From positions 1 through 8,915 of the forward strand of contig CAAGRM010000040.1 in NCBI GenBank assembly GCA_900772675.1: DNA of 8,915 bases, in the 5' to 3' direction. The DNA comes from Lachnospiraceae bacterium (lineage in GTDB: Bacteria > Bacillota > Clostridia > Lachnospirales > Lachnospiraceae). Under the pieces are notes generated by a model, which worked only from the letters and a program-made list of their open reading frames with translations, did no database searches and was not told the origin of the DNA. Position numbers and translations under genes: made by a program. This document shows positions 1-8,915 of the stretch, in pieces (position 1 is the first letter of the stretch; each line of letters starts with the position of its first letter).

Positions 1-675
1 CAGGAGCCGCAGAGCCGTGGGGCGGAACTTGACTGGCAGAGAACGGCAATGCGCGGTCGTTTCTGCGGCGGCGAGGCAGTACAGCGTGCAGCCGGAGAAG
101 AGAATGTTTCGGCAGCGGAAGCGATCAGGGATCTGGAAAAGATGCACATTTCCTATCTGAACAGCACGTATGACCCGCAGCTGCTGGAAGAATGGAAAAA
201 GGAAACCATAAACGGTGTGTCCGGCTTCGAAGCTGTGGGGAAACGTCTTGGTTACCGGTTTGTAGTGGAAAATGTGGAAATTCTTTCAGAAGAAGAGAAA
301 CGTATGTGGAAAACGGGGGAAGATTCTTCCGGTCAGATGACCTGGATGCGGATTACCCTGGAAAACCACGGATTTGCCGGGCTGACGGAAGAAGCCGACT
401 GTTTCCTGGAGATAGAAGAGGAGAACAAAAAGCCGGAAAAATACAGGATCCATACCGATGCCAGAGCCTGGCACAGTGGAGAAACCACCATACTTTGCCG
501 GCAAATCAAGCTGCCTGCGGTGGCAGAACCCAAAAAAATGTTTCTGGCATTATACCGCAGGCGGGATGGGCATCCGATTCTGTTTGCCAATCAGAATGCG
601 GAAAGCGGGCGTGTGTTTCTGGGCACGTATCAGAGCAGCTTTTCCAGCTTCAGTGTTCCGAGTCGGAATCCGTAA
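1..675 (+). CDS. DUF4832-family protein, C-terminal part (5' end outside window)
   Basis: The frame is open from base 1 to the TAA at 673-675, so the gene starts left of the window and the ATG at 49 is very unlikely to be its start. Visible product is 224 residues. It aligns by eye with the C-terminal half of the minus-strand protein at 630-2033: GAELDWQ matches DELDFQD, the GGE motif is kept, KMHISYLNS matches RMHVSYLNS, GVSGFEAVGKRLGYRFVV matches GISGYDYIARHMGYRYVV, and the end FLGTYQ matches FRLGTL. This is the DUF4832 pattern, usually found behind a DUF4874 domain with a glycosidase-like barrel; its biochemical role is not established. The last 13 codons (637-675) run past the point where the family normally ends and are antisense to the neighbouring gene, so this C-terminal tail was probably gained by loss of an original stop. 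Whether the 5' part is intact cannot be seen. Confidence 0.8.
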   Translation, partial: QEPQSRGAELDWQRTAMRGRFCGGEAVQRAAGEENVSAAEAIRDLEKMHISYLNSTYDPQLLEEWKKETINGVSGFEAVGKRLGYRFVVENVEILSEEEKRMWKTGEDSSGQMTWMRITLENHGFAGLTEEADCFLEIEEENKKPEKYRIHTDARAWHSGETTILCRQIKLPAVAEPKKMFLALYRRRDGHPILFANQNAESGRVFLGTYQSSFSSFSVPSRNP

Positions 676-2033
676 GTATCATGGGAAAACGTGTTGGCAG
701 GCTGGATTTCCCGCCAAAGTGACGGATCGGTCATCCGAAAATATACCGTATAAGTTCCTTTTTCCAGCTCACGGAACGGAAGGGAAACCGAAAGCTCTGC
801 GGTATTTTGGGGGAGCCAGAATCTGGAATCCCCGGACAGCGGGAAGGAGAAAAGCTTTCCTTTATCGGAAACCAGGGTGATTTCCAGATCCAGTCTGCGG
901 TAGCCGACGGAAAAACCGACATTTTCGAGCTCAATATTCAGCCGGGACTGATGCAGGGCAGTGTTGCGAACCACATAGCGGTAACCCATATGGCGCGCGA
1001 TATAGTCGTAGCCGGAGATACCGTCAAAAACAGAGGATTCATCGTAGTAAACCGAATTTTTCCACTTATCCAGAACCGCCGGATCATGCTCTGAATTCAA
1101 ATAAGAAACATGCATCCGGGAGAGATCCGCAAGGGCATGGTCAAGGTCATTGAAGGGATTGTCGAGAATCACCTCGCCGCCGTTTGGGACAAAATTGCAG
1201 AGCCTGTCCTGAAAGTCAAGCTCATCCTCACGCACCCAGGCAGAGCGATAAGCATCCGCAGAGGCAGGCGTATCTCCGTATGTGCCGGTATCATTTGCTG
1301 TTCCGAGCATTCCGTCATTGAAAAGCCCGAGGCGGGAGGAAAGTGAGCCATCAAAAGCAGTTTCTGCGGAAGGCAGCTCTGCCGAATTCAGAATCTTCCG
1401 TCGCTGTACCGGTGTGCGGACGGACAGAAAAATCGAAGGATCGATCACGTCTGCCAGATGCTGCATCAGAATGGAGCAGTCTTCATCGGACAGATGGTCG
1501 GAGCCATTCATCTCTCCGCAGTTACCGACAAAAATGCCCTGGATCAGAAAAACACTGTCCGTGTAGCGGTTTACGATTGCAGCAGTCTGATCCATGTGGC
1601 GCAGAATCTGGTCGAGGCTTTGCGGTTCCGATTCTTTCGCTTTGCCGTCCCAGTCGTACAGAAAGCGCAGAATCATCGAATTTCCGTGCTTCTGCCAGGA
1701 GGACAAAATCGTGTCAAGCTGTGCAAGTGCCGGATCGGAAAGATCCTGATCGGCAAACCGGCGCAAATTCAGTTCCAGCATCACAAGTCCGGGTGTCTTT
1801 TCGGGATTGGAATCCGGGTCGGGAAGATTGGAGAGCGTATCGTTTCCGAGAACGTAGCCGTACATCGAATAGAATCCGATATACGGATTGGATAATTCCT
1901 CTGCGGATTCCGTACACGCTTCCGGTGTATAACTGACATGATAAAAAGTGCAGATGCAAAGAAAAGCAAACAGGATGAGAAACAACAGGAGCAGAAGCGA
2001 GAATAAAATACGGGAAAACACTCTTTTTTTCAT
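630..2033 (-). CDS. Membrane-anchored DUF4874/DUF4832 protein
   Basis: The product has 467 residues. Residues 5-30 form a strongly hydrophobic signal-anchor after MKKR, so the rest should lie outside the membrane. Residues about 45-205 fit DUF4874: SNPYIGFYSMYG near 48-59, the RFLYDW segment at 123-128, and QGIFVGNCGE around 165-174 in place of the usual aromatic-rich GfiG-WGEW segment. Residues about 205-455 fit DUF4832: LFNDGMLGTANDTGTY at 237-252, GGE at 285-287 and MHVSYLNS at 307-314. The fold is thought to resemble a glycoside hydrolase barrel plus a beta domain, but no activity is proven; a role in surface polysaccharide handling is inferred from the flippase and Stealth genes nearby. 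The start is supported by AAAGGA at 2039-2044, five bases before the ATG. The stop (630-632) lies inside the convergent paralogue, leaving no room for a separate terminator. Confidence 0.88.
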   Translation of the reverse strand: MKKRVFSRILFSLLLLLFLILFAFLCICTFYHVSYTPEACTESAEELSNPYIGFYSMYGYVLGNDTLSNLPDPDSNPEKTPGLVMLELNLRRFADQDLSDPALAQLDTILSSWQKHGNSMILRFLYDWDGKAKESEPQSLDQILRHMDQTAAIVNRYTDSVFLIQGIFVGNCGEMNGSDHLSDEDCSILMQHLADVIDPSIFLSVRTPVQRRKILNSAELPSAETAFDGSLSSRLGLFNDGMLGTANDTGTYGDTPASADAYRSAWVREDELDFQDRLCNFVPNGGEVILDNPFNDLDHALADLSRMHVSYLNSEHDPAVLDKWKNSVYYDESSVFDGISGYDYIARHMGYRYVVRNTALHQSRLNIELENVGFSVGYRRLDLEITLVSDKGKLFSFPLSGDSRFWLPQNTAELSVSLPFRELEKGTYTVYFRMTDPSLWREIQPANTFSHDTYGFRLGTLKLEKLL

Positions 2034-2114: not shown

Positions 2115-2251
2115 ACGATCCAATGGCAAAAACATTTGTGATCGCCTGGTTTTCTGTAAAAACGGTGCCGTATCATTCCATCATACCATTTCGGAACAGT
2201 AAAAACCAGAAAAACAGAAGAAAAAAGTAATGAGAGTACATAACAAAGAAA

Positions 2252-2257
2252 AGGAGG
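2252..2257 (+). promoter_or_regulatory. Ribosome binding site fixing the flippase start
   Basis: AGGAGG ends five bases before the ATG at 2263. The other in-frame ATG, at 2230, has no purine-rich site at a useful distance and would put this Shine-Dalgarno sequence inside the coding region. The protein beginning at 2263 (MRIKNLFRNS) also has the normal N-terminus for this flippase family. Confidence 0.85.
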
Positions 2258-2262
2258 ACATC

Positions 2263-3795
2263 ATGCGGATTAAAAATCTATTTCGAAACAGCTTTTTCAG
2301 TATGGTTTCGCAGTTTGCACTCCTGATGCTTGGATTTTTCAGCCAGCGGGCAATGAATTTGTATATGGGTGCGGAACTTGTCGGCATGAACGGAGTCATT
2401 TCCAATGTTATTAACATCCTGTCCGTGACAGAGCTCGGCATTTCGACAGCCATTGTTTATCATCTGTACGGAGCACTTGCAAGGAAGGATGAGCATGAGA
2501 TTGCAGCGCTGATGAACCTGTACCGGAAGGCGTACCGTATTTTTGCGGTGATTGTATTCACGGCAGGAATGCTGCTGCTTCCGCTGATTCATCTGTTTAT
2601 GAAAAACAACAGCTACTCCCTGACGTATATTCGGATCTTGTACGCTATGTGGCTGATTCGCACGGTACTTTCCTATCTGCTCACCGATCGAAAATCGCTT
2701 TTAATTGCAGACCAGAAGGAATACATTGCGAGTATCGCCGGCCTGATTTTAAATGTTGTAAGTTATCTGGCGATTATTCTTCTTGTGACATATCAACAGA
2801 ATTATCTTCCGGCACTTGGCATTGGGATTGTGACAGAGGTGATGCTGAACATCTGGATTAACTGGTATGTGGAACGGAAATATCCGTTTCTTCATCAGCT
2901 GCGGAAAGAAAAAGGTTCCTCTTTCTTTAAGGAGCTGATCTTAAAGGATCTGAAAAACGTGTTTATCTCCAGGGTTTCGGACAAAATGCTGAACTGTACC
3001 GATAACCTGATTATTTCCGGGTTCATCGGCGTCGGCACAGTAGGACGGTATGCGAACTACAGCATGATTACGCAGGCGATTATCAATATTCTTACGATTC
3101 TGGCCAACACGATTCAGCCGACCATCGGAGATTACTTTACCGAAAAGAATTATCGGCGGAACTATGAAATTCTGCGGCAGCTGACCTTTGTGTTTTTCTG
3201 CATTTCTTCCGTTGTGGCCGCCGGACTTTTTTCACTGATTACTCCGTTTATCTGCGATATCTGGCTGAGTCCCGCGTATGAGCTTGGATGGGGAACAGCA
3301 GTGCTTTGTATTGTGGTGCTGCTGATCAAAATCATGGGACTGCCGCTCAGTCTTATGATGGGGGTAACAGGACTGTTTGAAAAAGAAAAAAATGCAGGCG
3401 CATCAAGTGCGGTTCTGAATCTGATCGTATCGCTTGCTCTTGTAAGACCATATGGCATGACAGGAGTCCTTCTTGGAACCTTACTTTCCTATCTGCTGCA
3501 GATCTGCTATCGATACGTTATTTTTTTCCGGGATTTTCTGGAAATGAAAGAAGAAGCGATACGTTATGCGAGGGATCTGGGCGAATACACCGCGGTGATG
3601 ATCCTGGAAGTCGCAGTGACGCGAAGGATCATACCGCTGATCTATGGAAACGGTGGAATGACGCCATTTATCTTCTGTTTTGTCCTCTGTATTCTGGTGC
3701 CGCTGGCACTAAATGGTGTGTTCTTTGGAAGAGGCTGGAGACTCCAGAGTATTGTGAAAATGGTGCGGGGAATGAAAAGAAGCGGAAGCAGATGA
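2263..3795 (+). CDS. Polysaccharide flippase, MATE/MOP superfamily (Wzx-like)
   Basis: The product has 510 residues when started at 2263. It is hydrophobic along its length, with many membrane spans. The N-terminal region reads like Clostridia lipid-linked oligosaccharide flippases: AELVGMNGVISNVINILSV, then TELGISTAIVYHLYG, then a polar loop with ALARKDEHEIAALMNLYRKA. Family knowledge says such proteins move undecaprenyl-diphosphate-linked repeat units across the cytoplasmic membrane for capsule or exopolysaccharide assembly. The length is normal for the family and no frameshift is seen. It stands alone on the plus strand: divergent from the DUF4874/DUF4832 gene upstream and convergent with the protease gene downstream. 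The donor lipid and glycan are unknown. A link to the export module to its right is possible only by position. Confidence 0.9.
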   Translation: MRIKNLFRNSFFSMVSQFALLMLGFFSQRAMNLYMGAELVGMNGVISNVINILSVTELGISTAIVYHLYGALARKDEHEIAALMNLYRKAYRIFAVIVFTAGMLLLPLIHLFMKNNSYSLTYIRILYAMWLIRTVLSYLLTDRKSLLIADQKEYIASIAGLILNVVSYLAIILLVTYQQNYLPALGIGIVTEVMLNIWINWYVERKYPFLHQLRKEKGSSFFKELILKDLKNVFISRVSDKMLNCTDNLIISGFIGVGTVGRYANYSMITQAIINILTILANTIQPTIGDYFTEKNYRRNYEILRQLTFVFFCISSVVAAGLFSLITPFICDIWLSPAYELGWGTAVLCIVVLLIKIMGLPLSLMMGVTGLFEKEKNAGASSAVLNLIVSLALVRPYGMTGVLLGTLLSYLLQICYRYVIFFRDFLEMKEEAIRYARDLGEYTAVMILEVAVTRRIIPLIYGNGGMTPFIFCFVLCILVPLALNGVFFGRGWRLQSIVKMVRGMKRSGSR

Positions 3796-3801
3796 TTTTT
3801 T

Positions 3802-3831
3802 GCGGCAGCCTGTCATTTGCAGGCTTACCGC
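3802..3831. other. Hairpin between convergent genes, not a canonical terminator
   Basis: AGCCTG at 3807-3812 pairs with CAGGCT at 3820-3825 around a 7-base loop, and GCGG at 3802-3805 pairs with CCGC at 3828-3831 outside a small internal bulge. It sits in the 29-base gap between the flippase stop (3795) and the protease stop (3825-3827), partly overlapping the latter. The six T residues at 3796-3801 come before the stem on the plus strand and read as A after it on the minus strand, so neither direction has the U-tract of an intrinsic terminator. It may stabilise 3' ends or slow polymerase. Confidence 0.45.
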
Positions 3832-4262
3832 CCGGAAGAAATTTTGCGAAAAAGTGCCATGATACGCCAGAAAAACGGGCGGATGGGGCGCAGGAAAAGC
3901 CAGAGAGAGGAAAGCATGCGGTAGACCGGATGAGAGACAGAAAACGATTTCCCGTTGCGCACAACACCTGTCAGCTTCCCACGGATCTGATCCGGGCGGA
4001 GCGGCCCTTCGATTTCGGTCTGGTTGTCCCCGACCAGATAAAAGCCATCCGAAGTGATGCGGCAGATCCGGTGAAGCACAAGAATACCCTGTTCACGGCG
4101 GTAAAGAATGACATCGCCGCGGCGGAGAAGATGGATCGGATACGCCTCAATGACGGCCTCATCCCGTCCGGGATGAAAAAGCGGATACATGCTGTAGCCC
4201 TGCGGCTTCAGCCGGATCGCGGAGCCGTCTTTTAAGAGCTGTTCAATGTCGTAGGTATACAT
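3825..4262 (-). CDS. S24/S26 family signal-peptidase-like protease
   Basis: The product has 145 residues. GYSMYPLF at 22-29 holds the nucleophile Ser24 in the usual GxSMxP context. RRGDVILYRR at 47-56 and VLHRICRI at 62-69 match the second conserved block, but His64 stands where bacterial signal peptidase I has Lys, as in the SipW, archaeal and ER-type enzymes. GDN at 78-80 fits the last conserved block. There is no N-terminal membrane anchor; instead the C-terminus (about 109-145) is rich in aromatic, hydrophobic and basic residues and could bind the membrane. GGAG at 4270-4273 lies seven bases before the ATG. The gene is divergent from the PqqD-HprK/exporter operon. Because that exporter lacks a C39 peptidase domain, this protease is the obvious candidate to remove the leader of the substrate at 7533-7913; that pairing is inference. 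Confidence 0.82.
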   Translation of the reverse strand: MYTYDIEQLLKDGSAIRLKPQGYSMYPLFHPGRDEAVIEAYPIHLLRRGDVILYRREQGILVLHRICRITSDGFYLVGDNQTEIEGPLRPDQIRGKLTGVVRNGKSFSVSHPVYRMLSSLWLFLRPIRPFFWRIMALFRKISSGR

Positions 4263-4295
4263 ATGGAAACTCCGTTCTGAAAAAAAGATAGATTT

Positions 4296-4304
4296 ATTAT
4301 AGCA
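4296..4304 (-). promoter_or_regulatory. Extended -10 promoter for the protease gene
   Basis: Read on the minus strand, TGC is followed directly by TATAAT (4301 down to 4296), an extended -10 element. There is no good -35 hexamer at 16-18 bases upstream, which extended -10 promoters tolerate. Transcription would begin near 4289, giving a 5' leader of about 27 bases before the ATG at 4262. A plus-strand promoter for 4343-5509 must lie in the same 80-base gap, probably overlapping this AT-rich patch, but I cannot define it. Confidence 0.55.
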
Positions 4305-4342
4305 TCTCTTTTCCGGAGCGAAAAGACAGAAAGGAACAAAAA

Positions 4343-5509
4343 ATGAGAATCAGAAGACAGGAAGGATATCTGCTGCAGAAAATCGGAAAAACCGTTTATC
4401 TTTTGCCCTATGGACAGAAAATTGCGGACCAGAAGCGTGGAATGGAACTGAATGAAACGGCTCTGAGGTTATGGGAGATGCTGGAACAGCCGCAGACGGT
4501 GGAAGCACTGACAGACAAGATGGCCGCATATTACGAGATTCCAAAAGAGGAGCAGGGAGAACTGGCGAAGGATATAGAGGCATTTGTACAGGAACTGCTT
4601 GTATTTGGCGCTGTGCGCCGGGAGCTGGGCTGCCCAAAGGGAAGCTGTGAGGGGCGGCTGCATATTGCGGGAATAAAAATTGAAGTCTATGGAGAAAAAG
4701 GATGCATTCCGAAGCAGTTTGATGCATTTCGCATGACAGATGGCGAAAATCCGGAGAAAGCAATCCCGGATCTTATCCTGGAACTGGCAGAACGTCTGCC
4801 AGGGAGCCGTCAGAACGGAACCATTCTGATCCGCAACCGGGATCTAACGGTTGCCATCTGGGAGGAGGGCTATGTTTTCCGGTTCGATACACTGAAAAAT
4901 ATTTACGAAATCTGGATGAAAGAAGACGGCAGTTATGTGCGGATTTATTATCGCTGCCCCATCAATGAGGAAGAGCAGGATTCCCTCTTCCTTGCAATCC
5001 GCCCGGTATTTCTGTTTCTGGCGCAGCGAAGGGGAATGTTTGCACTGCATTCGGCATCCCTTTTGTATCTTGAAAAAGCCTGGCTGTTTTCCGGTCCGTC
5101 GGGGATGGGAAAATCAACCCACACGGCACTCTGGAAAAAATTGTTTGCGACACCGTTTCTGAACGGGGATCTGAACCTGATCGGAAAAGAGGGAGAGAAA
5201 TTCGTTGTCTATGGCATCCCGTGGTGCGGAACATCAAAAATCTTTACGACGGAGAAAAAAGAGCTGGGTGGAATTGTACTGTTGGAAAAGGCGCCGTCGG
5301 AAGAACTGGTTTCGCTGACAGAAGAACAGAAAACCCTCCGTGTGATGCAGCGCATGATTTCCCCACCCTGGACCGCAGAGCTGATGGTAAAAAATTTAAA
5401 ATTCGCAGAAGCGGTTGCAAAGGAAAAGCCGGTTTACTTCCTACGATGCACAAAGAATGACACAGCGGCGGAAACGATACGGCGGCAGATCGAGGAGGAT
5501 GAATCATGA
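4343..5509 (+). CDS. PqqD-like domain fused to HPr-kinase-like ATPase
   Basis: The product has 388 residues. Residues 1 to about 95 form a PqqD/RRE-type winged-helix domain: GYLLQKIGKTVYLLPYGQ, then LNETALRLWEML, EQPQTVEALTDKMA and a C-terminal helix. In RiPP pathways such domains bind the leader of the substrate. The C-terminal half is an HPr kinase/PEP-carboxykinase-type ATPase: FALHSASLL before the P-loop GPSGMGKST at 251-259, FLNGDLN at 272-278, and GIPWCGTSK further on. HprK relatives in lasso peptide clusters phosphorylate the precursor, so substrate phosphorylation is a reasonable guess. No lasso cyclase or leader peptidase B2 is present in the window. AAAGGA at 4330-4335 lies seven bases before the ATG. 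The TGA overlaps the exporter ATG by four bases, so the two are translationally coupled. Confidence 0.85.
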   Translation: MRIRRQEGYLLQKIGKTVYLLPYGQKIADQKRGMELNETALRLWEMLEQPQTVEALTDKMAAYYEIPKEEQGELAKDIEAFVQELLVFGAVRRELGCPKGSCEGRLHIAGIKIEVYGEKGCIPKQFDAFRMTDGENPEKAIPDLILELAERLPGSRQNGTILIRNRDLTVAIWEEGYVFRFDTLKNIYEIWMKEDGSYVRIYYRCPINEEEQDSLFLAIRPVFLFLAQRRGMFALHSASLLYLEKAWLFSGPSGMGKSTHTALWKKLFATPFLNGDLNLIGKEGEKFVVYGIPWCGTSKIFTTEKKELGGIVLLEKAPSEELVSLTEEQKTLRVMQRMISPPWTAELMVKNLKFAEAVAKEKPVYFLRCTKNDTAAETIRRQIEEDES

Positions 5510-7275
5510 AGGAGCTTCGGCAGAAGATAGGGAAATACCTTCAGGCAGAAATGCTGCAGAAGATGTGGAAGGAATTTCGCTGGATTTTTCAGTATGCCAG
5601 AAGGTACTGGAAAGCCATGCTTTTTTATACGGCGCTTGGCATTTTCGGAACCGGTGTTTCACTGGCATCGAGTGTGATCTCAAAGGATCTTGTCGATATC
5701 ATCACAGGCCACCAGACGGGAAAACTGATGCAGACCTTTGCATTGATGATAGGATTTTCCTTTGGAAATACCCTGATTTCCCAGGCGACCAGTTATGCCT
5801 CGACGATGATTAACCTGAAAGTAGATCGGGAAATCCAGAATGACATTTTTGAAAAAATTCTGGTGACGGACTGGGAATCCTTAACCACTTATCACACGGG
5901 CGATCTGGTTACACGCTGGAGCTCGGACGCATCGAACATTTCCGGCGGTATCCTGAACTGGCTGCCGAATCTTGTGATTTATACGGTAAAATTTATCAGT
6001 GCACTGGCAGTTGTTGTTCATTACGATCCGACATTTGCGGTCTTTGCACTGCTCGGAATCCCGTTCAGCGCCCTGCTGTCGCGCCCGCTGCTGCGGCGGA
6101 TGACGAACAACAATCAGCGGAGCGCACAGATGAGCGCGAAGCTGTACGGCTTCAACCAGGAGGCATTTTCCAATATTCAGACGATTAAGGCATTCGATAT
6201 GATTCGTTTTTATGTAAATCGTTTGAAAAATCTGCAGCAGGACTATATCAAAATGCGGCTCGATTTCCAGAAAATGTCCATTGCAACATCACTTCTGATG
6301 ACGCTGATCAGCTACGTTGTTTCCTACAGCTGCTATGGCTGGGGAATTTACCGTGTCTGGAGCGGAGCAATTTCCTATGGAACGATGACCATGTTTCTGT
6401 CCCTTTCCGGTACGCTGACCGGTGCGGTCAACTCTTTGGTGAGTCTTGTGCCGTCGGCGATATCACTCGGCATTTCAGCCGGCCGTCTGATGGATATCGT
6501 AGAGATGCCGCAGGAGGATTACAGTGCAGATGGCGAAGTAGAACAGTTTGCGGAGAAATATCAGTCGGGAGGCATCGGACTTAAGATGCAGGATCTTTGC
6601 TATACGTATCACACAGGGACGGAAGTGTTTTCGAATGCTTCGATGGAAGCGTGGCCGCATGAGATTATTGCACTGGTTGGCCCATCGGGAGGGGGGAAAA
6701 CAACCATGCTCCGCCTGATTTTGTCCCTGCTGCGTGCGCAGGAGGGGGAAGCCTGGATCGGTGCAGGAGAGGAACCATCGCAGAGGCTTGCCCTGTCGCC
6801 GTCTACGCGAAAGCTGTTTTCCTACGTGCCGCAGGGAAACACGATGTTTTCGGGAACAATAGCGGAAAATATGCGGAATGTGAAGCCGGAAGCTACAGAC
6901 GAGGAGATCATAGAAGCATTAAAACTGGCATGTGCCTGGGATTTTGTGGAAAAACTGCCAGACGGTATTAAGAGTATGGTGAAAGAACGCGGCGGTGGAT
7001 TTTCAGAGGGGCAGGCACAGCGGCTTTCGATTGCGCGCGCACTGCTTCGGAAATCACCGATTCTGCTGCTGGATGAAGCAACCTCGGCACTTGATGTGGC
7101 AACAGAGAGGAAGGTGCTGAACAATATTATGACGGATACGTATCCGCGAACCTGCATTGTAACGACACATCGGCCTACGGTACTCGGAATCTGTACGAGA
7201 GTGTATGCGATTCGGGATAAGAAGTGCGAAGTGGTGGGTGAAACGGAGATCGCGGAGATGGAGAAGGATTTTTAA
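5506..7275 (+). CDS. ABC exporter, fused permease and ATPase, no peptidase domain
   Basis: The product has 589 residues, a typical ABC half-transporter that would work as a dimer. The membrane domain shows spans at about 36-58, 76-98, 149-171, 173-192, 260-284 and 291-312. The ATPase domain has Walker A GPSGGGKTT at 392-400, Q-loop Gln443, a signature in the variant form FSEGQ at 499-503, Walker B ILLLDEATSALD at 519-530 and H-loop His555. There is no N-terminal C39 cysteine peptidase domain, so any leader cleavage must be done by another protein. Translation is coupled to the PqqD-HprK gene by an ATGA overlap, with GAGGAGG just upstream. The coupling and the candidate substrate next door suggest export of the 7533-7913 protein; drug or lipid export cannot be excluded from sequence. 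Confidence 0.88.
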   Translation: MKELRQKIGKYLQAEMLQKMWKEFRWIFQYARRYWKAMLFYTALGIFGTGVSLASSVISKDLVDIITGHQTGKLMQTFALMIGFSFGNTLISQATSYASTMINLKVDREIQNDIFEKILVTDWESLTTYHTGDLVTRWSSDASNISGGILNWLPNLVIYTVKFISALAVVVHYDPTFAVFALLGIPFSALLSRPLLRRMTNNNQRSAQMSAKLYGFNQEAFSNIQTIKAFDMIRFYVNRLKNLQQDYIKMRLDFQKMSIATSLLMTLISYVVSYSCYGWGIYRVWSGAISYGTMTMFLSLSGTLTGAVNSLVSLVPSAISLGISAGRLMDIVEMPQEDYSADGEVEQFAEKYQSGGIGLKMQDLCYTYHTGTEVFSNASMEAWPHEIIALVGPSGGGKTTMLRLILSLLRAQEGEAWIGAGEEPSQRLALSPSTRKLFSYVPQGNTMFSGTIAENMRNVKPEATDEEIIEALKLACAWDFVEKLPDGIKSMVKERGGGFSEGQAQRLSIARALLRKSPILLLDEATSALDVATERKVLNNIMTDTYPRTCIVTTHRPTVLGICTRVYAIRDKKCEVVGETEIAEMEKDF

Positions 7276-7282
7276 AGATAAA

Positions 7283-7325
7283 AAAAGAAAAAGCAATGGG
7301 GACGCACCTCATTGCTTTTTCTTTT
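7283..7325. terminator. Bidirectional intrinsic terminator
   Basis: The arms 7283-7298 and 7310-7325 are perfectly complementary over 16 bp, including the core AAAGCAATG/CATTGCTTT, and can extend through GGG/CCT to a 5-base loop. The A-rich left arm and T-rich right arm give a U-tract in both directions. It starts 8 bases after the exporter stop on the plus strand and 17 bases after the stop of the remnant on the minus strand (7342), so it should end both the PqqD-HprK/exporter operon and the substrate transcript. Confidence 0.9.
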
Positions 7326-7341
7326 GATAACTTGCTGAAGA

Positions 7342-7500
7342 TTAATCGGTAATTTTATCACTAACAACCGCAAGACCTGGCTTAGAAATTACAACTAAAT
7401 CATCTAAACCAATGTTATCATTAGGATTTTTCTGGAATTTCATATAGCGAGAAGCAACATCGAGATGCAGCGTAAGCGGAATCGAGATGTTGCTCTGAAC
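7342..7500 (-). pseudogene. C-terminal remnant of a second substrate-like protein
   Basis: Read on the minus strand, the frame from 7500 encodes about 52 residues and ends with TAA at 7344-7342. SNISIPLTLHLD followed, after an insertion, by NIGLDDLVVIS resembles the C-terminus of the intact upstream protein, SNPLTIGIHLN followed by TSIDDLKMTGF. The remnant is in a different frame from the intact gene and begins about 33 bases after its stop (7533). It has no start codon with a ribosome binding site; the only ATG (7441-7443) is internal. The rest of the gene, including a leader, is missing. Codon use looks more AT-rich towards its end. It would be transcribed from the same promoter as the intact gene. 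The similarity is short and was judged by eye, so homology is likely but not certain. Confidence 0.6.
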
Positions 7501-7532
7501 AGTTATCAAAGTTTTTAGAGCAGGTTTGCTTT

Positions 7533-7913
7533 TTAGTTTACCGAGTAGGTGAAGCCGGTCATCTTCAGATCGTCGATGCTGGTTCCGTGATTTAAATGGA
7601 TACCAATCGTCAGTGGATTTGATGCTGTGCTGGCAAAGGTAAACGTAGCAGTCTTTCCGGAGCAGGAAGTCTGTACAGATGCATCATCCGTTTCTGCCTG
7701 GTCAACCGTGTCGTTGAACGTAACGTTCAATGTGATCGTTCCGTTAATACCTGACCAGTTTGCCATTGCAAGACCTTTACCGCCATTTGTACCCCAGCGA
7801 TCCCACACGCCGTAGTAAGTAACATTCAGAGTTCCTCCGCCGCTTGCCGCATAAACGCCTTCTGCCATTCCGGTGTCGATAGAGACGACAGGTTTTTTAT
7901 AAGCTTTAGTCAT
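7533..7913 (-). CDS. Candidate exported substrate protein with RiPP-like leader
   Basis: The product has 126 residues. Residues 1 to about 25 form a leader with KKPVVSIDTG and then MAEGVYAASG; it has no long hydrophobic core and so is not a standard Sec signal peptide. V20-Y21-A22 fits the -3/-1 rule for signal-peptidase-type cleavage, and SGGG follows. The body (about 26-126) is rich in Thr, Asn, Ser and Gly with alternating beta-type segments such as TLNVTYYGVW, TITLNVTFND, TATFTFAS and FTYSV, suggesting a small beta-sandwich. There is a single Cys (84). Five Asn-X-Ser/Thr sites occur at 30, 52, 57, 63 and 67. AAGGAG at 7925-7930 lies 11 bases before the ATG. It has its own strong promoter and converges on the exporter operon. 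I recognise the leader style as one found with PqqD/HprK modules in Clostridia, but not the body; its function is unknown. Confidence 0.75.
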   Translation of the reverse strand: MTKAYKKPVVSIDTGMAEGVYAASGGGTLNVTYYGVWDRWGTNGGKGLAMANWSGINGTITLNVTFNDTVDQAETDDASVQTSCSGKTATFTFASTASNPLTIGIHLNHGTSIDDLKMTGFTYSVN

Positions 7914-7960
7914 AGATCAGTAATCTCCTTTCTTGTGAAAATTCTTTTTATTACAAATTT

Positions 7961-7990
7961 ATTATAGAAATAAAATCACACACATGTCAA
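7961..7990 (-). promoter_or_regulatory. Consensus SigA-type promoter of the substrate gene
   Basis: On the minus strand, TTGACA (7990 to 7985) and TATAAT (7966 to 7961) both match the consensus exactly, with an 18-base spacer. Transcription should start near 7954, giving a 5' leader of about 40 bases before the ATG at 7913. This predicts high expression of the substrate gene from its own promoter, separate from the machinery genes. Confidence 0.85.
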
Positions 7991-8075
7991 TAGATCCGAG
8001 ATAAAAAATTACAATTTTAATTAAAATACATATTGCTTTATAATCTGTCACGCGAACGAACAGAAAAAAAGTTTT

Positions 8076-8915
8076 TTATTTCTCAAACTGTGATTTTTCC
8101 GGAAACAGGATAGAAAATGCATGGTTTAATTCCTGTTTTACTTTTTCATATGGGATTTCAAAGTTGCTGTCGTTGATACAAATGCATTTTGACTTCTGTT
8201 TCGTAATCGTCTTTACCAGCTCCGGGTTTTCCGGCTGCAGATTAAAGTATCGGCAGAATTTATGAATATTCTTCGGAACAAAATTTCCGCTCAGCTTCTG
8301 ATATTCCCGCAGAACATACTGGCTGATATCTTCTTTGTGACGGAAAGGATGGCAACAGACACGATGCAAAAGCTCTTCTTCGTTTTTCCAGAAGAAACGG
8401 TAGGACTCTTTTTTTAGCGGGGATGGCCCGTGTACGGTGTAAAAACCGGTAAAACGCGGAAAGGCCATTTCCAGAAGATTATATCCGAAATACATCAACG
8501 GATAGCCGGGATGAAAATATGCGCCCAGCTGTTTCTTCATATTTTCCCGTTTATCGAAATATTTGGCGAGAACCATCGCATTGTTCAGATAGACATACGG
8601 CATAATCTGGTCATCCGCATTTGCAACATCTGGCTGAAGCGCAAGCATATCAACAGGTCTTTCGTCTCTAAAAAAATCTTCCGGAGAAACTTTTTTTATG
8701 AGAAACATATCATCATTGAAATAAACAAAATTTTCTGTCAGCCATTCAATGCGATGAAAATTCCACTCAATTGGATGGGAACTAAAGGTAGGAAGAAATT
8801 CCGCAGGAATAAAATCCTCGTGCCGCACAATATGCAGTTTGGGATGCTCTTCCTTTAACCATTTCGGCAGATGCCCATAGGTTATAAAATGAATTTGGTT
8901 GACCCATGGTGCAAA
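8076..8915 (-). CDS. Stealth-family sugar-phosphate transferase, C-terminal part
   Basis: The frame is open to the right edge of the window, so the N-terminus (including conserved region CR1) is missing; 279 residues are visible. The GTG at 8826-8828 is internal, not a start. CR2 is clear: FAPWVNQIHFITYGHLPKWL at the edge, then IVRHEDFIPAEFLPTFSS, EWNFHRIEWLTENFVYFNDD. CR3 follows as YTVHGPSPLKKES, and CR4 as ICINDSNFEIPYEKV near the C-terminus. Stealth proteins are hexose-1-phosphoryl transferases that build phosphodiester-linked capsule or exopolysaccharide chains; the NDD motif is part of the conserved active region. The sugar donor is not predictable here. With the flippase and DUF4874/DUF4832 genes it supports a surface polysaccharide locus. 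The stop is followed by an AT-rich stretch with no clear terminator before the substrate promoter 85 bases on. Confidence 0.92.
   Translation of the reverse strand, partial: FAPWVNQIHFITYGHLPKWLKEEHPKLHIVRHEDFIPAEFLPTFSSHPIEWNFHRIEWLTENFVYFNDDMFLIKKVSPEDFFRDERPVDMLALQPDVANADDQIMPYVYLNNAMVLAKYFDKRENMKKQLGAYFHPGYPLMYFGYNLLEMAFPRFTGFYTVHGPSPLKKESYRFFWKNEEELLHRVCCHPFRHKEDISQYVLREYQKLSGNFVPKNIHKFCRYFNLQPENPELVKTITKQKSKCICINDSNFEIPYEKVKQELNHAFSILFPEKSQFEK

What the first reader, a model, noticed from the sequence alone, without database searches (positions are those of the whole stretch)
3825..7913. Compact leader-dependent processing and export module with a protein-sized substrate
Seen: four genes side by side encode a His-type signal-peptidase-like protease, a PqqD-HprK fusion, an ABC exporter lacking a peptidase domain, and a small leader-bearing, beta-rich protein with a very strong promoter. 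Known: PqqD/RRE domains bind RiPP leaders, HprK relatives phosphorylate lasso precursors, and ABC exporters move processed peptides. Inferred: these form one pathway in which the leader of the 126-residue protein is bound by the PqqD domain, the protein is perhaps phosphorylated, exported, and cleaved by the S26 enzyme. No radical SAM enzyme, lasso cyclase, lanthionine synthetase or C39 peptidase is present in the window, and the substrate is far larger than a usual RiPP core, so this fits none of the standard classes I know.
Basis: partly seen in the sequence, partly recalled or inferred. Interest (0 to 1): 0.85.

Follow-up and report, generated by a model that had tools for sequence, protein, structure and literature searches.

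The report
Leader-tagged protein export and processing module
In bacteria of the Lachnospiraceae family, a recurring gene module puts one short, highly conserved leader tag in front of quite different small proteins, and the neighbouring genes are predicted to bind that tag, likely phosphorylate the protein, cut the tag off and export the protein, so peptide-antibiotic machinery appears to have become an interchangeable protein-delivery system near surface-sugar genes.

Summary
The four genes are real. The module is a Lachnospiraceae relative of the recently published linear polyphosphorylated peptide (LPP) RiPP systems, with three changes: the RRE (PqqD) is fused to the HprK-like kinase; the leader reads KxYxKPxV...EGVYAASG; and the cargo is protein-sized (about 50-165 aa) and interchangeable. 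In 397 Lachnospiraceae genomes the leader occurs in 22; 21 of these carry the fused kinase, as do 3 of the 375 without the leader; none of 66 genomes with other HprK/PqqD hits has the leader. All 22 also carry DUF4832, present in 58 of the other 375. Precursor pairs at one locus share on average 74-78% of the leader but about 20% of the mature part. The window records a cargo swap: leader and promoter match Fusicatenibacter DNA, the mature part matches Coprococcus DNA, and the 3' end of a Fusicatenibacter-type cargo remains as a fossil. The S26 triad is invariant in the relatives aligned, most leader-contact residues of the RRE are kept and the promoter is a 12/12 consensus. Two cargo families are predicted beta-sandwiches, nearest to carbohydrate-binding modules. 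Phosphorylation, cleavage and export are inferred.

The parts
3825..4262 (-). S26 (SipW/LppS-like) Ser-His-Asp leader peptidase, 145 aa, no clear transmembrane helix
   Evidence: TIGR02228 E 4e-9 (below cut-off); S24/H64/D79 invariant in 43 of 43 rows, 19-residue hydropathy maximum 1.08
4343..4621 (+). PqqD/RRE domain (about residues 1-93) of the fusion; predicted to bind the YxKP leader
   Evidence: Pfam PqqD E 5.3e-12; best PDB match LppB 9x8z (profile E 0.0035; single sequence E 0.29); contact residues N37, D77, F81 kept in 51, 52 and 52 of 58 ORFs
4985..5467 (+). HprK-like P-loop kinase domain (about residues 215-375) of the same ORF 4343-5509
   Evidence: TIGR04355 E 0.002; H236, K257, D276 in 56, 56 and 55 of 58 ORFs
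5506..7275 (+). MsbA-like ABC exporter without C39 peptidase domain
   Evidence: ABC_membrane 1.2e-35, ABC_tran 6.1e-26, no C39 in the table
7342..7437 (-). Remnant (last 31 codons and stop) of a different cargo gene of the L001/L040 type
   Evidence: blastx 58% over 31 aa to L040 cargo, E 2.6e-10; DNA 73% to the 3' end of the L001 cargo gene
7533..7913 (-). Precursor, 126 aa
   Evidence: 2086 relatives at E<=1, best 120 listed; 118 of these 120 match a strict leader pattern, the other two differ from it in one letter
7839..7913 (-). Leader (residues 1-25, ending EGVYAASG); predicted cut A23|S24, S24 = candidate phospho-site
   Evidence: P, E, G, A, S, G invariant in the 47 leaders aligned; cut and phospho-site by analogy to LppA (PMC13381572), not tested
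7533..7838 (-). Mature domain, predicted beta-sandwich
7961..7990 (-). Consensus promoter TTGACA-N18-TATAAT of the precursor gene
   Evidence: 12 of 12
630..2033 (-). DUF4874-DUF4832 protein; DUF4832 is associated with the leader at genome level
   Evidence: E 3.7e-49 and 1.4e-52; DUF4832 in 22 of 22 leader genomes against 58 of 375 others
1..675 (+). Second DUF4832 protein, cut by the window start
   Evidence: E 3.4e-35
2230..3795 (+). Polysaccharide flippase-like membrane protein (true start probably 2263, by its ribosome site)
   Evidence: PF01943 E 1e-6; recurs beside the module
8076..8915 (-). Stealth-family protein (sugar-phosphate transferase family, function recalled), cut by the window end; lies where many relatives have the NTase
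   Evidence: Stealth_CR2 E 3.4e-33

Best explanation
The window holds a module in which the PqqD domain likely binds the YxKP motif of the precursor's leader, the fused HprK-like domain would phosphorylate the invariant serine at the leader's end, the S26 peptidase is predicted to cut beside it (YAA|SG), and the ABC exporter is predicted to secrete the freed, predicted beta-sandwich protein. It is a variant of the LPP type of RiPP pathway that appears to have become an interchangeable protein-delivery system: the leader is kept and the mature domain is exchanged. The gene surroundings (flippase, Stealth, DUF4832/DUF4874, NTase in relatives) and the carbohydrate-binding-like predicted folds suggest that the delivered proteins work at the cell surface with an exopolysaccharide. 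Shown by sequence: module, leader conservation, co-occurrence, mosaic DNA of the cargo gene, conserved catalytic and contact residues. Inferred: binding, phosphorylation, cleavage point, export, order of the swap, surface role.
For: Leader and fused RRE-kinase co-occur in 21 genomes, leader only 1, fused only 3, neither 372 of 397; 0 of 66 genomes with other HprK/PqqD hits have the leader. 26 of 37 leader hits lie within 10 kb of a fused gene on the same contig. The leader is in 2 of 391 class-level genomes, both already in the family sample. 47 leaders: P, E, G, A, S, G invariant, Y and V over 90%. The closest solved structure to the RRE profile is LppB in complex with its leader (9x8z, E 0.0035, weak); the LppB residues that hold Tyr and Pro of YxxP (N33, D70, F74) map to N37, D77, F81 here, kept in 51, 52 and 52 of 58 ORFs (PMC13381572 section 8). 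The S26 triad is invariant in 43 of 43 rows, as required in LppS (section 11). LppA is cut after F-E-T, aromatic at -3 and small at -1, which Y-A-A matches. Mosaic cargo gene. Same-locus precursor pairs: mean leader identity 0.78 and 0.74, mature 0.23 and 0.18 (6 and 5 pairs). DUF4832 is in 22 of 22 leader genomes. Four of ten cargos scanned hit CBM_2, two above cut-off.
Confidence: 0.72

Rival explanations
1. It is a plain LPP pathway whose product is an ordinary modified natural product (signal or antimicrobial); the large core is a long RiPP core without protein-like function.
For: Same gene set as LPP in relatives, NTase included; published LPP precursors run to 200 aa with variable C-termini (PMC13381572, section 6).
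Against: Cargos fall into recurrent domain families; two without detectable sequence link are predicted as beta-sandwiches and others match Pfam CBM_2. The RRE is fused and the leader motif after YxxPxV differs from LPP's.
Confidence: 0.2
2. The HprK-like domain does not phosphorylate cargo but uses ATP as a switch that loads leader-bound cargo onto peptidase and exporter.
For: The fusion puts leader binder and ATP-binding domain in one chain; I know of no phosphorylation shown for this clade.
Against: K257, H236 and D276 are in 56, 56 and 55 of 58 ORFs; a serine at the leader end is invariant in the 47 leaders aligned (three odd leaders, L017, L042 and L039, were left out of it, and L017's ends differently); the relative LppK phosphorylates its precursor (PMC13381572, section 7).
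Confidence: 0.15
3. The four genes are only neighbours: the precursor is secreted by another route and the kinase gene serves something else.
For: 11 of 37 leader hits are not within 10 kb of a fused gene.
Against: 21 of 22 genome-level co-occurrence; recurrent module in related loci; the leader has no long hydrophobic stretch that would serve as a Sec signal (sequence).
Confidence: 0.03

Closest known systems
Linear polyphosphorylated peptides, LPP (Popov et al. 2026, PMC13381572; sections 6, 7, 8, 9, 11, 12 read, the rest searched for words)
   Same: SpI-like Ser-His-Asp leader peptidase, RRE recognising YxxPxV, HprK-like kinase, MsbA-like exporter, capsule-type surroundings, no cyclase; NTase present in many relatives
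   Different: RRE and kinase fused; leader end EGVYAASG instead of HQxIxFETxxS; recurrent, exchangeable cargo domains predicted to fold; DUF4832/DUF4874 association; no NTase in the window. The paper's main text holds neither the word stems Clostridi and Lachnospir nor the motif GVYAAS
Paeninodin-type phosphorylated lasso peptides
   Same: PqqD (B1), HprK-like kinase, exporter, [Y/W]xxP leader motif (as told in PMC13381572)
   Different: No cyclase and no B2 protease found in the window; leader has Y not W; cargo is protein-sized
SipW/TasA secretion (recalled)
   Same: SipW-like peptidase family (below cut-off)
   Different: No Sec-type hydrophobic signal in the leader, no clear N-terminal membrane helix in the peptidase, dedicated ABC exporter and RRE-kinase
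C39 peptidase-containing ABC transporters (PCAT)
   Same: ABC export of a leader-bearing small protein
   Different: No C39 domain found, no double-glycine-type processing peptidase on the exporter; separate S26 peptidase

Membership tests
LPP | SpI-like peptidase with Ser/His/Asp triad | tested here: met
   S24/H64/D79 in 43 of 43 rows
LPP | Discrete RRE | tested here: not met
   RRE is fused to the kinase in one 388-aa ORF
LPP | HprK-like kinase | tested here: met
   TIGR04355 E 0.002 only; P-loop K and catalytic-type H and D kept in 55-56 of 58 ORFs; activity untested
LPP | NTP transferase (PF14907) in the cluster | tested here: not met
   None among the 8 window proteins; found in 25 of 49 related fused-type loci by phmmer with two queries; 4 of those 25 checked singly by Pfam, 4 confirmed (L003, L019, L022, L036), and L103 besides
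LPP | MsbA-like exporter without C39 | tested here: met
LPP | Leader YxxPxVLxHQxIxFETxxS | tested here: not met
   YxxPxV shared; the rest reads differently and ends EGVYAASG
LPP | Polyphosphorylated serine in the core | not testable with these tools
   needs mass spectrometry
LPP | Capsule/exopolysaccharide locus | tested here: met
   flippase, Stealth and DUF4832 neighbours in the window and in relatives
Lasso peptide | Asparagine-synthetase-like cyclase and B2 protease | tested here: not met
   no such domain among the 8 window proteins scanned
PCAT/C39 export | C39 peptidase domain on the ABC exporter | tested here: not met
   no Peptidase_C39 in the Pfam table of the exporter
CBM2 (window cargo) | Pfam CBM_2 match | tested here: not met
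   no CBM_2 hit at E<=1
CBM2 (window cargo) | CBM2-like fold | tested here: inconclusive

The most novel reading that the evidence does not exclude
This is a general leader-addressed protein secretion and decoration system born from a RiPP pathway: one 23-residue tag, read by a fused RRE-kinase, delivers any small domain placed behind it; the phosphorylated N-terminal serine left by S26 cleavage is the anchor on which NTase, Stealth and flippase products build or attach a (phospho)glycan, giving surface proteins that carry or grip the cell's own polysaccharide, with cargo domains swapped by recombination at the tag.
Probability: 0.2. Interest if true: 0.88.

Novelty: new variant of a known kind. 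Interest (0 to 1): 0.7.

Why it matters
It would show a RiPP leader-recognition machine turned into a modular protein exporter in Lachnospiraceae, many of them gut bacteria, with natural cargo swaps at the leader junction. It makes two questions directly testable: what LPP-type clusters beside capsule genes are for, and whether leader plus RRE-kinase can address arbitrary small proteins for processing and export. The window's cargo family is abundant in public sequence data (2086 proteins at E<=1; one listed member, P0046, named Blautia glucerasea by a source, on 743 contigs).

Tried and rejected
Lasso peptide: rejected, no cyclase or B2 among the window proteins. C39 exporter: rejected. Sec/SipW substrate: rejected on leader sequence. 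Cargo as known family: no Pfam match over cut-off, no NCBIfam match. PDB sequence search of S26: no hit; of the DUF4832 protein: no hit; of a stand-alone HprK relative: nothing useful. Rfam: nothing at gathering scores. A neighbour scan covered 96 proteins of 11 loci (one search had listed 141 of 15 loci; I left out 4 loci and 7 further ORFs); among the 25 of 68 families displayed there is no cyclase or radical SAM family, so rarer ones are not excluded. Collections of phages, plasmids, E. coli and viral contigs were not searched. Fused-type loci were L001-L048 and L067; L049 (kinase in two adjacent ORFs) was in neither group; L050-L080 without L067 were the split group, in some of which no PqqD ORF was seen beside the kinase. 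The short YxKP precursors are picks from a motif list that also held chance ORFs. Literature searches: (open-licence PMC only); apart from PMC13381572 no title or abstract listed there describes such a module, and EGVYAASG is in none of the papers that one search listed (10 of 26). PMC12710340 was seen in passages only; other papers in search listings only. PADLOC and PHROGs were not searched.
Full report
What is there. Four ORFs stand as described: S26 peptidase 3825-4262(-), PqqD-HprK fusion 4343-5509(+), ABC exporter 5506-7275(+) and a 126-residue precursor 7533-7913(-). Domain searches support PqqD (E 5.3e-12) and ABC exporter, show no C39 domain, and give the precursor no family over cut-off. 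The kinase half matches HprK-related models only weakly (TIGR04355 E 0.002; stand-alone relatives in other Clostridia match ScmC and HprK_rel_A, below cut-off), but its P-loop lysine and catalytic-type His and Asp are kept in 55-56 of 58 ORFs (57 distinct). The precursor promoter is a perfect TTGACA-N18-TATAAT. The source organism is not told; closeness to Fusicatenibacter (L001) and Blautia proteins points to Lachnospiraceae (inference).

A recurrent module. A scan of genome contigs with 16 PqqD-HprK relatives kept the best 80 loci. L001-L048 and L067 are of the fused type. Of L001-L048, 27 have at least 9 kb on both sides of the fused gene; in these I find ABC 24, leader ORF 23, S26 22, NTase 16, DUF4832 13, flippase 12, Stealth 8 (bit thresholds my own; the leader profile was trained on these loci). 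Without the flank condition 39 of 48 hold a leader ORF. In L050-L080 (without L067) the kinase is a separate gene; nine of them hold candidate 38-56 aa YxKP precursors (L050, L051, L053, L057, L060, L064, L071, L073, L080), and NTase was found in 5 of 30 by a two-sequence search, confirmed by Pfam for L071 and L080. These look like LPP-type short-peptide systems.

One leader, many cargos. Fifty-one leader ORFs above 20 bits were found in the window (1) and in 40 of 80 loci (50). Of 50 distinct leaders, 47 were aligned (three odd ones left out): P6, E16, G17, A21, S22, G23 invariant and Y3, V18 above 90%. Mature parts fall into one large linked group (38, itself mixed: CYTV..., DCWTV... and CBM2-like types), a Cys-rich group (6), the window's group (3: window, L002, L003) and four singletons; 20 further stretches gave 21 more leader ORFs, some of new types. 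Precursor pairs at one locus are on average 78% (6 pairs of one linked group) and 74% (5 pairs of different groups) identical in the leader, and 23% and 18% in the mature part.

Genome-level test. In 397 genomes of the family of G001 (the genome of L001), the leader (E<=1e-3) is in 22 and PqqD/HprK hits are in 90. I class 24 as fused (open frame of 370 or more with both halves, four of them read from two pieces: G361, G215, G051, G026; judged by hand, and the tool cut its match list at the end). Leader and fused: 21; leader only: 1 (G148); fused only: 3; neither: 372. None of the 66 genomes with other HprK/PqqD hits has the leader. DUF4832 is in 80 of 397 and in 22 of 22 leader genomes (Fisher p 1e-30 and 4e-17, not corrected for kinship). 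26 of 37 leader hits are within 10 kb of a fused gene. At class level the leader is in 2 of 391 genomes, both in the family sample. The window's mature domain is in 1 of 397 genomes, with fused kinase and leader. The leader model came from loci found through the kinase gene; by coordinates 5 of the 24 fused places are such loci, so most of the association is not self-made, and the DUF4832 result is free of that choice.

A mosaic cargo gene. DNA comparison: window 7840-7995 (leader and promoter) is 75% identical to L001 (Fusicatenibacter saccharivorans); window 7341-7428 is 73% identical to the 3' end of L001's cargo gene, and by blastx 7345-7437 matches the last 31 residues of the same cargo type (58% to L040, E 2.6e-10); between them no L001 match better than E 0.1 appears, and 7533-7901 is instead 76% identical to the Coprococcus catus cargo gene (L002). 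The L001 similarity ends at the leader's last codons. The simplest reading is replacement of the mature domain behind a kept leader, leaving the old 3' end behind. The order of events is inferred.

Mechanism. Popov et al. 2026 (PMC13381572; sections read) show for LPP that LppB binds YxxPxV, LppS (S29, H68, D93) cuts after F-E-T with LppB's help, and LppK phosphorylates core Ser3. The closest PDB match of the RRE profile here is LppB (9x8z, E 0.0035; the window sequence alone E 0.29). With a chain offset of 18 that I worked out from the residues named in the paper, LppB N33, D70 and F74 map to N37, D77 and F81, kept in 51, 52 and 52 of 58; Y60 maps to Y64, Y in 32 and F in 12. S26 keeps the triad in 43 of 43 rows and shows no clear membrane helix (44 examined; the highest values come from one gene with an over-extended start, present twice as L003/L083), so cleavage inside the cell is likelier than outside. 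By analogy (aromatic -3, small -1) the cut is predicted at YAA|SG, leaving the invariant serine first; it is the best candidate phospho-site. None of this is demonstrated.

Verdict. What is new here, as far as could show, is the fused RRE-kinase, the EGVYAASG tag, exchangeable protein cargo with a visible swap, and the tight link to DUF4832 and polysaccharide genes.

Noticed in passing
L001:13808-15061: Tn916-type integrase (Phage_integrase 6.6e-36, Integrase_DNA 1.6e-34) beside the cargo gene of Fusicatenibacter, a possible route for module or cargo transfer.
   Followed up: no
L007, L010, L024, L028, L034, L035, L047, L087, L088, L092, L101, L103: Cys-rich cargos with the same leader (types KCDSKYMNG... 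and CRYGRKQA... and similar), about 50-100 aa after the leader, unlike the beta-sandwich cargos.
   Followed up: partly
L050, L051, L053, L057, L060, L064, L071, L073, L080: Candidate short 38-56 aa YxKP precursors in loci of other Clostridia with a separate HprK-like kinase, LPP-like sister systems; L080 has two nearly identical copies.
   Followed up: partly
window 630-2033 and 1-675: Pair of DUF4832 proteins of opposite strands; DUF4832 tracks the leader at genome level (22 of 22); function unknown, no PDB relative by sequence for 630-2033.
   Followed up: partly
L102:8278-9631: Three leader-bearing cargo genes of different sequence in a row beside one module.
   Followed up: no
L088 (G137:C87:8000-22000): Two leader ORFs beside their own S26 and ABC genes, about 37 kb from the fused kinase of the same contig (L041/L089), so the module can be split within a genome.
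   Followed up: partly
L093, L094, L095 (G098, G051, G026): Fused kinase genes in genomes without a leader at E<=1e-3 and without DUF4832, perhaps a separate subtype; L093 has a weak leader-like ORF.
   Followed up: partly
L090-L092 (G148): Three leader-bearing ORFs on three contigs of a small assembly without any kinase hit; probably incomplete, not proven.
   Followed up: no
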